DNA from: a virus | Virus record (IMG/VR): IMGVR_UViG_3300046538_000167 | Location: 1-47,039 of that record | Direction: 5' to 3' (one strand) | DNA: 47,039 bases | Notes under the pieces: model-generated | What the model was told of the DNA's origin: nothing | What the model saw: only the letters and a program-made list of their open reading frames with translations | The model's database searches: none | Part shown: piece by piece, positions 1-29,871 of the stretch | How the letters are laid out: each line of letters begins with the position of its first letter | Position numbering within the stretch: position 1 is the stretch's first letter | Program-made: the position numbers and the translations under genes

Positions 1-126
1 ACACAACTCGCCCAAAGCACCCTGCCCGTCGGGTCGCTGAGGGTTAACTTAATAGACACGGCTACGCATGTAGTACCGACAGCGGAGTACTGGCGGACGG
101 GGGTTCAAATCCCCCCGGCTCCACCA
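1..126 (+). ncRNA. ssrA: tmRNA (ssrA), 3' portion
   Basis: This is the 3' part of transfer-messenger RNA, which rescues stalled ribosomes. The gene starts to the left of the window. The visible part holds the pseudoknot-rich domain and the tRNA-like 3' end: the T-arm GTTCAAATC, the acceptor strand CCGGCTCC and the encoded CCA. The peptide-tag reading frame is outside the window. The last 26 bases belong to the prophage attachment repeat, so the present 3' end is supplied by the phage and restores an intact tmRNA. Confidence 0.93.
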
Positions 127-27897: not shown

Positions 27898-28135
27898 AAG
27901 CCAAACGAAACACGGCCAGGGCCTGAAAAGGTTCGCTTACACGACTGGTGAAGCCGCCAGATAGCCCGGGATCAGCGAAGTGATCTCCAAGCCTCCTGAC
28001 AGGAGACCGACTTGAACCAAGTTCTTTGACATAGAGATTCAAGACGGTGACCAGCCAGTAGCGGGTCACGGAGAACAGATTTCCTCGATGCGCTTGGAAG
28101 CAGGCGCATTCGGAAAATCGGACAGGAGAAGGAAG
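27898..28135 (+). other. Structured pL leader, no gene
   Basis: No plausible reading frame. Several short hairpins follow one another: GATCA/TGATC near 27972, CTCCTG/CAGGAG near 28000, CTTG/CAAG near 28012, GTGACC/GGTCAC near 28047-28070 and ATGCGC/GCGCAT near 28088-28112. This could hold a nut-type antitermination site or translational control for the first gene. The last bases include the Shine-Dalgarno AGGAGAAGG. Confidence 0.5.
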
Positions 28136-28474
28136 ATGTCAAAACAGAACGATATAGAGCATCTACAAGACCTGATGCAAAAAGGCGAGCTGACCGCAGA
28201 TCAAGCGAACGTGCAGATGGTTCGCAACGAGCGCTTCAGGATGGTGGTGAACAGCCTCCCTGCGAGCCTTCGGAAGGCCCTCAACGCCGCAGTTCGTAAC
28301 GGCGAGCTTGGGCACATGAAGAAAGACGGCCACAAGCCTGAATGCTACTTCCACCCAACCTTCGAATATTTGGCAAAGGCTGAACGCCTGAAGCGAGAGC
28401 GCGAAGTGATCAGCGCGCGCGGCGCGGCAACTGTATGCATGAGCGACATCGTGCGCGCCGGGGACCAACCCTGA
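28136..28474 (+). CDS. First protein of the pL operon, unrecognised (N position)
   Basis: The 112 residues begin MSKQNDIEHLQDLMQKGELTADQANVQMVRNERFRMVVNSLPASLRKALNAAVRNGELGHMKKDG; helical and basic overall, with a likely RNA- or DNA-binding charge pattern (KRLREREVISARG near the C-terminus). It holds the place of lambda N, the antiterminator, and an intrinsic terminator lies 1 kb downstream in the same operon, but there is no clear Arg-rich motif of N. The start is chosen by AGGAGAAGG. Confidence 0.6.
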   Translation: MSKQNDIEHLQDLMQKGELTADQANVQMVRNERFRMVVNSLPASLRKALNAAVRNGELGHMKKDGHKPECYFHPTFEYLAKAERLKREREVISARGAATVCMSDIVRAGDQP

Positions 28475-28499
28475 ACCATCTTCCTGCGCATTCACAGAG

Positions 28500-28702
28500 T
28501 GCGCAGCTGGGTGCGGATGAGTACACGCGGCGTAATGCCGCCCCCTGCATCACCTACTGCTAACGCCACACCCAGTCGCTGCCTCCAGTAGAGAGCGACC
28601 GGATATCAGATGGCATCTGGCTGTTTCCGGATCGCCATCTGGCTTTACAAGTGCTGTCTAAACCCCAGACAGCACTCGAAAGCCACGAACGGAGCAATAC
28701 CC
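28500..28702 (+). other. Structured intergenic segment with perfect hairpin
   Basis: No gene. A bulged stem pairs GCAGCTGGGTG (near 28503) with CACCCAG-TCG-CTGC (near 28575-28588). A second, perfect 10-bp hairpin AGTGCTGTCT/AGACAGCACT with a 7-base loop lies at 28650-28676 and has no U-tract, so it is not a terminator. The 3' end carries the Shine-Dalgarno GGAG of the next gene. Confidence 0.5.
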
Positions 28703-28975
28703 ATGACCGCACTTGAACGCCCAATATGTGATTCGGAGGTTGCTCGCAACAACCTATCTCGCGAAATCGAACGTCTCGGCGACGTCGTGCAAGACCTTGA
28801 AGCGCGACTTCAGCTCGTCATTGTGCCGTCATCTGGAATTGGCGCTGCCGCAAATGGTGGAGAACCAAAATCCCCAATGCGTAGCCCTCTTGCAGAGGAG
28901 CTTCACGCTCGCGCTGATCGCATCACCTCAATCACTGATCGCATCATCAGCCTTCGCCAAAGCCTAGATCTGTAA
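28703..28975 (+). CDS. Small coiled-coil protein, unrecognised
   Basis: The 90 residues have two helical coiled-coil segments (NNLSREIERLGDVVQDLEARLQ and LAEELHARADRITSITDRIISLRQSL) joined by a Gly/Ser/Pro linker. The two-helix hairpin design suggests a dimeric binding protein. Shine-Dalgarno GGAG ahead of ATG. The role is unknown. Confidence 0.55.
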   Translation: MTALERPICDSEVARNNLSREIERLGDVVQDLEARLQLVIVPSSGIGAAANGGEPKSPMRSPLAEELHARADRITSITDRIISLRQSLDL

Positions 28976-29038
28976 CCCACTCCATCGTCCGCCGTACGCA
29001 ACGGCCCGATATCTCTCTGGGGAAACTCGTTTAGAGAG

Positions 29039-29244
29039 TGCGTCTATATCGGGGTCTGATCTGAACCGCCAGCAGAATTGAAGGCGCTGGCAAGTAGCCG
29101 AAAAGCGAGGGTTCGCAACCTCGGGAAGAACGCGAGACCACGACCAGGCAGTGAGAAATCACCGGAGCGTGGCTTGAGGGGGCGCACTCAGAGGCGCAAA
29201 GCGGGGCTTGCCTTCCGCACAGATCAGACCCCGATGTAGATGCG
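29039..29244 (+). ncRNA. Candidate structured RNA: 24-bp closing helix around a multi-hairpin domain
   Basis: Bases 29039-29062 pair with 29221-29244 in a continuous 24-bp helix that includes three G-U pairs (29039/29244, 29042/29241, 29047/29236), which favours RNA pairing over a DNA palindrome. The 158 bases inside hold further local helices: GCCAGC/GCTGGC (near 29068-29091), CGAGG/CCTCG (near 29106-29123), CCACG/CGTGG (near 29137-29171), GCGC/GCGC (near 29180s) and GCGG/CCGC (near 29201-29218). No good reading frame is present on either strand. I do not recognise an Rfam class. Confidence 0.6.
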
Positions 29245-29508
29245 AGCGCAGGCTGATGCGCAAACGAAATGCCCAAGCGGTGGAATGACGCGGGCCTACT
29301 TAATAACAGCGACTCGGTCCACCAACCCGGAGATCAGCGCCGGGCATCTGCATCAGGCGTTCGGTGTCAGTAACCGACGGCGCGGGGTGCGTCGATAACT
29401 CAGCCTCTTTGCCAAACTCAACGCGGAGGATGCAGCCATGTAACAGACAGCCAAGCCCTCCAGCAGGAGGCATATTCACTCTCACGTAGGGAGGTCTGCG
29501 TGAGTGAC
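29245..29508 (+). other. Non-coding extension of the structured region
   Basis: No gene beyond very short frames. More hairpins can be drawn: ATGCCC/GGGCAT enclosing GGTGGA/TCCACC (from about 29270 to 29348), CCCGG/CCGGG and a bulged CGTTCGG/CCGACG. The stretch ends at an intrinsic terminator, so 28976-29536 could be the end of one long untranslated RNA. A 19-codon frame after GGAGG near 29430 is too short to support. Confidence 0.4.
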
Positions 29509-29536
29509 AAAGCCCGGACTTGTGCCGGGCTTTTTA
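29509..29536 (+). terminator. Intrinsic terminator after the structured RNA region
   Basis: AAAGCCCGG-ACTTGTG-CCGGGCTTT is followed by TTATT; 9-bp stem. It lies inside the pL operon, so most downstream genes depend on antitermination or on another promoter. Confidence 0.88.
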
Positions 29537-29559
29537 TTGGGCGATTGGAGGTGAGCGTG

Positions 29560-29871
29560 ATGAGCGATTCATTCCAAAGCAAAAACATCGTTAAGGCACG
29601 AAGCCCCCATCAGTGTGAGTGCTGTGACCGCACCATCAACCCCGGCGAGCGCTACATGAACATTGCCGGCAAGTGGGATGGTGATTTCTACGCAGTCAAG
29701 ACATGCATGGGCTGCGACAGCCTCATGGACTTGATCTGGAAGTTCGACGCAGAGCGTGATGGCTGGCTCGCTGACGATGGGCTGGCGTTTCACGAAGTAA
29801 TCGAAATCGGTGAGGAATTCGGCCTGATTTGCAGAGTTCCACAAGCCCAACCCGCTGGAGTACAGCCATGA
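29560..29871 (+). CDS. Small zinc-finger-like protein, unrecognised
   Basis: The 103 residues contain two CxxC knuckles: QCECCDRTINPGERYMNIAG and VKTCMGCDSL, which could bind one zinc with the intervening beta hairpin. The C-terminus is acidic with a final Pro/Gln tail. GGAGG precedes this ATG; an upstream GTG frame starts inside the terminator and is rejected. Confidence 0.65.
   Translation: MSDSFQSKNIVKARSPHQCECCDRTINPGERYMNIAGKWDGDFYAVKTCMGCDSLMDLIWKFDAERDGWLADDGLAFHEVIEIGEEFGLICRVPQAQPAGVQP

What the first reader, a model, noticed from the sequence alone, without database searches (positions are those of the whole stretch)
29039..29244. Candidate new phage structured RNA with a 24-bp closing helix
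Two arms 158 bases apart form a continuous 24-bp helix with three G-U pairs, which is what RNA structure, not a DNA inverted repeat, would leave. At least five local hairpins fill the interior, so the fold is a large multi-branch domain. No reading frame is credible. It lies in the early pL operon of a prophage. The size and shape recall ornate phage RNAs, but I recognise no class.
Basis: partly seen in the sequence, partly recalled or inferred. Interest (0 to 1): 0.85.

Follow-up and report, generated by a model that had tools for sequence, protein, structure and literature searches.

The report
Phage RNA scaffold with swappable inserts
The helix is real and is half of a widespread, unannotated phage RNA in which a conserved frame with two touching loops holds ever-changing inserts, some shaped like pieces of tRNA; it also sits unnoticed in textbook phage P1, where its job could be tested at once.

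Summary
Confirmed and extended. The 24-25-bp helix (29039-29063 / 29220-29244) is the longest in the window (next 17 bp; longest in 12 shuffled windows 19 bp). It is one module of a larger RNA, about 29005-29357. The conserved part lies at and beyond the finding's 3' end (29234-29353): a terminal helix, hairpin H1, an insert, hairpin H2, with H1 and H2 loops complementary. I found 177 confident distinct copies in 175 contigs of gammaproteobacterial phages, including phage P1 (three tandem copies beside its tRNA genes). A covariance model trained without the window finds it at 59.8 bits, E 9e-15. Terminal helix, stems and the loop-loop contact covary (loop-loop Fisher p 8e-15). The interiors are not one conserved fold: they are hypervariable inserts (128 families among 176) that reassort; 12% of upstream inserts carry a tRNA T-arm motif (control 1.8%). 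When a sampled locus has a tRNA gene, it usually lies within 1.5 kb on the same strand (26 of 31). No Rfam model hits the window; STnc100 (RF02076), a prophage sRNA, is a probable distant sibling. Function is unproven; I favour a scaffold presenting an effector insert, perhaps a tRNA-mimic decoy.

The parts
29005..29012 (+). CCCGATAT, can pair with 29046-29053 (ATATCGGG), i.e. competes with the long helix
   Evidence: read from sequence; CCGAT/ATCGG kept in L107, L109, L110
29013..29038 (+). 5' flanking hairpin
   Evidence: 9-bp hairpin in MFE fold; same hairpin with changed loop in L107-L110
29039..29063 (+). 5' arm (B) of the module I closing helix
29064..29219 (+). module I insert (156 nt), not shared with any phage record searched
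   Evidence: no match; inserts of relatives are unrelated and 26-224 nt long
29220..29244 (+). 3' arm (C) of the module I closing helix; its 3' half is also the 5' strand of module II
29234..29353 (+). module II, the conserved domain
   Evidence: covariance model R1 (window not in training): 59.8 bits, E 9.4e-15
29234..29242 (+). 5' strand of module II terminal helix (ATGTAGATG), pairs with 29345-29353
29246..29261 (+). hairpin H1, stem GCGCA/TGCGC, loop GGCTGA (29251-29256)
29262..29325 (+). module II insert (hypervariable)
   Evidence: 128 insert families among 176
29326..29344 (+). hairpin H2, stem CCCGG/CCGGG, loop AGATCAGCG; TCAGC pairs with GCTGA of H1
   Evidence: loop-loop covariation
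29345..29353 (+). 3' strand (D) of the terminal helix (CATCTGCAT)

Best explanation
A phage-encoded, trans-acting structured RNA made of an exchangeable insert held by a conserved scaffold. Shown by comparison: module I is a long closing helix round one insert; module II is a terminal helix plus two hairpins (H1, H2) whose loops pair with each other, round a second insert; the scaffold is kept by compensating changes while the inserts are replaced wholesale and reassort. Inferred: the RNA is transcribed with the early operon (here), with phage tRNAs (P1, KP591P1) or between Q and lysis genes (ES2); the kissing-loop scaffold makes a stable frame that presents the insert, and the insert is the effector. 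Most likely, and least certain: the insert acts as a mimic or decoy for host tRNA-directed machinery (for example anticodon nucleases and toxins used against phages), which would explain its tRNA-like pieces, its place in tRNA islands and its fast turnover.
For: Structure: 97.3% of 816 cells paired, 13 of 24 pairs changed on both sides, covariation score 0.376 vs 0.133 shuffled (0/500), slid controls at most 46% paired; loop-loop G/A vs C/T table 124,12,5,23, p 8e-15, or 29,8,5,13, p 8e-4 counting each distinct helix once; G-U 22 vs A-C 6 in a set chosen without using the helix, p 0.004. Window hit by an independent model, E 9e-15. Module I helix at least 9 bp in 130 of 164 contexts, 29 of them 17 bp or more, none of the shuffles above 12. 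Insert turnover: 128 families of 176; one insert family of 12 sits behind 11 unrelated module I inserts. tRNA link: T-arm motif 16/130 vs 1.8%; Rfam tRNA hits inside module I of L248 (34.9 bits) and L239 (31.5 bits); tRNA-Pro inside module II of L355; same-strand tRNA within 1.5 kb in 26 of the 31 loci that have any tRNA, chance 11.9; CAU anticodon-arm-like motif in inserts with at least five different outer stems. Phage P1: copies downstream of trnA and trnT.
Against: No transcript, protein partner or phenotype was seen here. Most inserts, the window's included, are not recognisable as tRNA. Some of the tRNA linkage may only mean that both lie in tolerated non-coding islands. The relatives STnc100 and PasD are reported as Hfq-linked base-pairing sRNAs, which favours a seed rather than a decoy.
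Confidence: 0.45

Rival explanations
1. A base-pairing small RNA of the STnc100/PasD kind: the scaffold binds a chaperone and the variable insert is the seed that pairs with host or phage mRNAs.
For: STnc100 (RF02076) has a like frame (GGUG-AAU-H1 ... H2-CACC); the third P1 module is hit by both RF02076 (33.4 bits) and R1 (25.3 bits); the ES2 module overlaps an RF02076 hit (23.8 bits, E 4e-5). PasD is reported as abundant, Hfq-bound and northern-validated, with variable targets (PMC13192938). Terminator-like hairpins follow 39/169 copies vs 5-12/177 at random sites.
Against: Inserts are long and highly structured, often without an evident single-stranded seed; some are tRNA-like; RF02076 does not hit the window or the Pseudomonas phage contigs tested; R1 does not hit a STnc100 proper (L473).
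Confidence: 0.25
2. A cis-acting switch in phage operons: the 3' arm of module I and the 5' strand of module II are the same sequence, so the helices exclude each other (1-2/2-3/3-4 as in an attenuator) and set read-through or translation downstream.
For: In the window 29234-29243 pairs with either 29040-29049 or 29344-29353; 49 of 166 copies have such competition vs 10 shuffled; early-operon position.
Against: Found in unrelated contexts with no common downstream gene; 70% of copies fail the strict competition test; the inserts would have no role.
Confidence: 0.12
3. A DNA-level mobile cassette or MITE-like element whose 'helix' is its terminal inverted repeats, exchanged by recombination.
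For: Near-symmetrical ends, cassette-like swapping, near-direct repeats flanking module II.
Against: Terminal helix sequence is arbitrary but complementary; loop-loop compensation; G-U exceeds A-C on one strand. Homologous recombination at conserved ends explains the swapping.
Confidence: 0.05

Closest known systems
STnc100 (Rfam RF02076) and PasD, prophage sRNAs of enterobacteria
   Same: Terminal helix ending GUG/CAC, AAU then a 5-bp hairpin with a 6-nt loop, H2-like GC hairpin abutting CAC; one bridging copy (P1 third module) is hit by both models; found between Q and lysis genes in phage Evi
   Different: Other loop sequences, a mostly fixed interior in RF02076, own terminator in the model; no RF02076 match in the window or the Pseudomonas phage contigs tested
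GOLLD and ROOL ornate phage RNAs
   Same: Phage/prophage RNAs often near tRNA islands, kissing loops, a variable linker that can hold tRNAs (PMC12286853)
   Different: No Rfam match here; about 120-360 nt instead of several hundred; different helices; oligomerisation untested
T4 stable RNAs C and D (species 1 and 2)
   Same: Non-tRNA RNAs annotated in a phage tRNA cluster; RNA C carries a T-arm-like hairpin
   Different: No R1 match; no H1/H2 frame seen
Bacterial Y RNAs (YrlA)
   Same: RNA with a tRNA-like domain; its tRNA-like domain has been proposed as an inhibitor of an anticodon nuclease (PMC7790460)
   Different: No Y RNA model matched in any cmscan here; no Ro/Rsr gene context seen

Membership tests
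STnc100 RF02076 | score at or above the gathering cut-off of 47 bits | tested here: not met
   No match in the window
STnc100 RF02076 | terminal helix abutting an H2-like GC hairpin, hairpin H1 after GUG-AAU | tested here: met
   Same geometry by alignment of consensus; window has UG-CGA instead of UG-AAU
STnc100 RF02076 | STnc100 loop sequences (GUGCGG / AGGCA) | tested here: not met
   Window loops are GGCUGA / AGAUCAGCG
STnc100 RF02076 | intrinsic terminator at the 3' end | tested here: inconclusive
   A GC hairpin with a T-run lies near 29510-29537 by eye; the scan tool listed none
STnc100/PasD | Hfq association, expression | not testable with these tools
   needs RNA-seq or RIL-seq
GOLLD / ROOL | match to the Rfam model | tested here: not met
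   No match in the window or the relatives scanned
GOLLD / ROOL | homo-oligomer held by kissing loops | not testable with these tools
   loop complementarity shown, inter- or intramolecular not known
tRNA | ARAGORN or Rfam tRNA call | tested here: not met
   none in the window; some relatives' inserts do
class A scaffold defined here (model R1) | significant score without training on the window | tested here: met
   59.8 bits, E 9.4e-15
class A scaffold defined here (model R1) | H1:H2 loop complementarity | tested here: met
   GCUGA (29252-29256) / UCAGC (29334-29338), read

The most novel reading that the evidence does not exclude
A new class of phage RNA in which a kissing-loop scaffold works like a variable-domain frame: phages swap effector RNA inserts, many of them tRNA-derived, to keep pace with host tRNA-targeting defences, with STnc100/PasD as one domesticated branch.
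Probability: 0.3. Interest if true: 0.95.

Novelty: new variant of a known kind. Interest (0 to 1): 0.8.

Why it matters
An unannotated RNA frame sits in hundreds of phage contigs, in phage P1 and in about a fifth of complete E. coli genomes (one insert family alone: 1143 of 5426), and links prophage sRNAs (STnc100, PasD), phage tRNA islands and ornate phage RNAs. Because P1 carries three copies in a laboratory phage, its role can be tested directly. If inserts are tRNA decoys, this would be an RNA-based counter-defence with built-in variability.

Tried and rejected
Arm pattern CGGGGTCTGATCTG in viral contigs: chance hits only. Upstream small protein as bait: no relatives. DNA similarity of 28900-29560 to phage records: none. 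Free-loop descriptor scan: too many chance hits; it gave the first GACTGA/AGATCAGTA variant. Coding explanation: rejected. Integron attC, group I/II intron, retron and lambda nut/put sites: considered, no defining feature seen in the sequence (not tested by model beyond Rfam). Literature for an existing description of this class: none found in ten searches of the open library; most subscription papers were not covered, so prior description cannot be excluded.

Full report
OBSERVATION. It is the longest uninterrupted helix of the window by far (25 vs 17 bp; 12 dinucleotide shuffles gave at most 19). The + strand folds with z = -6.0, the - strand with z = -5.6, so energy alone does not tell the strand. 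Rfam finds only a tmRNA fragment at window 1-126, and nothing relevant at E up to 10 around the element. No frame is open through it, and relatives do not share a frame.

RELATIVES. A scan with the arm sequence found only chance matches. The neighbouring zinc-finger-type gene product (29560-29868) brought in 13 phage contigs. Four of them (L107, L108, L109, L110) carry the same element with a changed helix: in L110 CTGTATCGGAGTGTGATCTG / CAGATCACACTCCGATGCAG, in L107 CGCATCGGATATAGCTCGG / TCGAGCTATATCCGATGCG. Interiors differ completely in sequence and length. What is shared lies at the 3' edge and beyond: GATGNNGATGNNNGCGCAGGCTGATGCGC and, 60-170 nt later, CCGGAGATCAGCGCCGGGCATCTGCATC. In named phages it is unannotated: Pseudomonas PS-1, Jeremy, Aurca01; Klebsiella KP591P1 and Magnus; Cronobacter ES2; P1-like RCS47 and JL22. 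The H1 pattern occurs in 19 of 299 Pseudomonas genomes (4 with the reversed-pattern control) and 7 of 398 across the phylum (control 0), and sequence like the RCS47 copy is in 1143 of 5426 E. coli genomes, with no annotated feature under any listed match. In E. coli JJ1886 it lies, as in the window, behind a CI-type repressor gene at the head of an early operon (window repressor by PHROGs).

ANATOMY. Module II: terminal helix (N6-GUG with CAC-N6'), hairpin H1 (5-bp stem, 6-nt loop GGCUGA), insert, hairpin H2 (5-bp stem, loop AGAUCAGCA), H2 abutting the terminal helix. GCUGA of H1 is complementary to UCAGC of H2. In the window: 29234-29242, 29246-29261, 29262-29325, 29326-29344, 29345-29353. 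Module I: the reported long helix round another insert, just upstream; its 3' arm overlaps the 5' strand of module II, so in the window the same bases can pair with either side.

TESTS. On 34 diverse sequences, 97.3% of 816 cells pair, 13 of 24 pairs change on both sides, covariation 0.376 against 0.133 in shuffles (0 of 500 reach it), and slid structures pair only 25-46%. Because those sequences were partly chosen for helix pairing, I repeated it on 82 helices picked by H1 and H2 only: at positions -7 to -1, 92% are Watson-Crick, and G-U (22) exceeds A-C (6), p = 0.004 against equal odds (shuffled partners also give more G-U than A-C, 45.8 vs 31.5, so this is modest support), which points to RNA read from this strand. 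Loop-loop: H1 GGCUGA goes with H2 CAGC, H1 GACUGA with CAGU (124, 12, 5, 23; p = 8e-15; counting each distinct terminal helix once 29, 8, 5, 13; p = 8e-4). H1 conservation itself is partly by construction, since H1 was the bait; phylogenetic dependence remains. A covariance model of module II built without the window finds the window copy at 59.8 bits, E = 9.4e-15, next window hit 9.0 bits, and copies in most other loci tested. Module I: 130 of 164 upstream contexts have a helix of at least 9 bp, 29 of them 17 bp or more; shuffled sequence never exceeds 12.

INSERTS. Module II inserts are 12-225 nt; 176 of them fall into 128 unrelated families, and one family of 12 is found behind 11 unrelated module I inserts: insert and scaffold reassort. 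Module I inserts carry a T-arm motif in 16 of 130 cases against 1.8% in random windows; those in L248 and L239 pass Rfam's tRNA cut-off; L355 has a tRNA-Pro inside module II. A hairpin with GGG-NNCAUAN-CCC, like an initiator anticodon arm, recurs in inserts with at least five different outer stems, among them P1, JJ1886, L277 and L421. Of 175 loci, 31 have a tRNA gene, and in 26 of these one lies on the same strand within 1.5 kb (chance 11.9), often 12-20 nt away. The window's own insert is not recognisably tRNA-like beyond one hairpin (GCGAGGGTTCGCAACCTCGGG).

PHAGE P1. P1 (NC_005856) has three modules in a row right after trnA and trnT, at about 69.50-69.64, 69.73-69.92 and 70.01-70.20 kb; the second scores 70.8 bits, the third 25.3, and the first is a truncated variant recognised by its module I helix and H2-like hairpin, not by the model. 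The annotated minus-strand ORFs plp and upl overlap them, and plp even overlaps trnT, so they may not be genes. Lambda, the D3 stretch searched (1-50000 of 56426) and the T4 tRNA region have no match.

KNOWN RELATIVES. The third P1 module is also hit by Rfam STnc100 (33.4 bits, below its cut-off of 47), Magnus has a full STnc100 (52.9 bits) besides class A copies, and the ES2 class A copy overlaps a weak STnc100 hit. The STnc100 consensus has the same frame with other loops. R1 does not hit a STnc100 proper. I read this as probable distant kinship, not membership. STnc100 and PasD are prophage sRNAs; PasD is reported as Hfq-bound, northern-validated and structurally related to STnc100 (PMC13192938), so at least that branch is expressed. 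In design the family resembles GOLLD and ROOL: phage RNAs near tRNA islands, kissing loops, variable linker that may hold tRNAs (PMC12286853).

MECHANISM. Shown: scaffold, loop contact, insert turnover, tRNA neighbourhood. Inferred: transcription, stability, effector role of the insert. I favour a scaffold presenting a mimic/decoy insert aimed at host tRNA-directed machinery (0.45); a base-pairing sRNA (0.25) is close behind; a cis switch (0.12) and a DNA element (0.05) are less likely.

VERDICT. The extent, the shape and the reason for interest change: a new branch of a widely spread modular RNA, not one ornate 206-nt domain.

Noticed in passing
window 28480-28556: A smaller related structure (GGTGCGGATGAG ... 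CCCCCTGCATCACC behind a strong hairpin); similar pieces in L108 985-1070 and upstream of modules in L128, L140, L155.
   Followed up: partly
window 29425-29443; L178, L186, L189, L207, L375 downstream of module II: Shine-Dalgarno followed by ATG-TAA, a start-stop minigene conserved downstream of several Pseudomonas copies.
   Followed up: partly
L107-L112, upstream of the zinc-finger gene: Another conserved non-coding element, CGTCAGCACTC...CCCGCGCCCATCGGCAACCAGCGGGAGG...GAGTGTTGACGAATACAG, with complementary ends.
   Followed up: no
L463 29473-30042 (P1 plp, upl): Annotated minus-strand ORFs lie over the RNA modules and overlap trnT; probably not genes.
   Followed up: partly
L242, L277, L313, L329, L421, L462 and others: Recurrent insert hairpin with an anticodon-arm-like CAU loop and covarying outer stem.
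   Followed up: partly
L247 1772-1851: Rfam Proteo-phage-1 RNA lies about 50 nt upstream of the element in phage PS-1.
   Followed up: no
L464 1409-1672: T4 stable RNAs C and D sit in the tRNA cluster; RNA C carries a T-arm-like hairpin.
   Followed up: partly
window 28036-28138: A non-coding stretch that occurs twice in L107 (2739-2808, 3362-3443): a further repeated intergenic element of these phages.
   Followed up: no
window 1-126: 3' part of a tmRNA gene at the record's end, suggesting a prophage integrated in ssrA.
   Followed up: no
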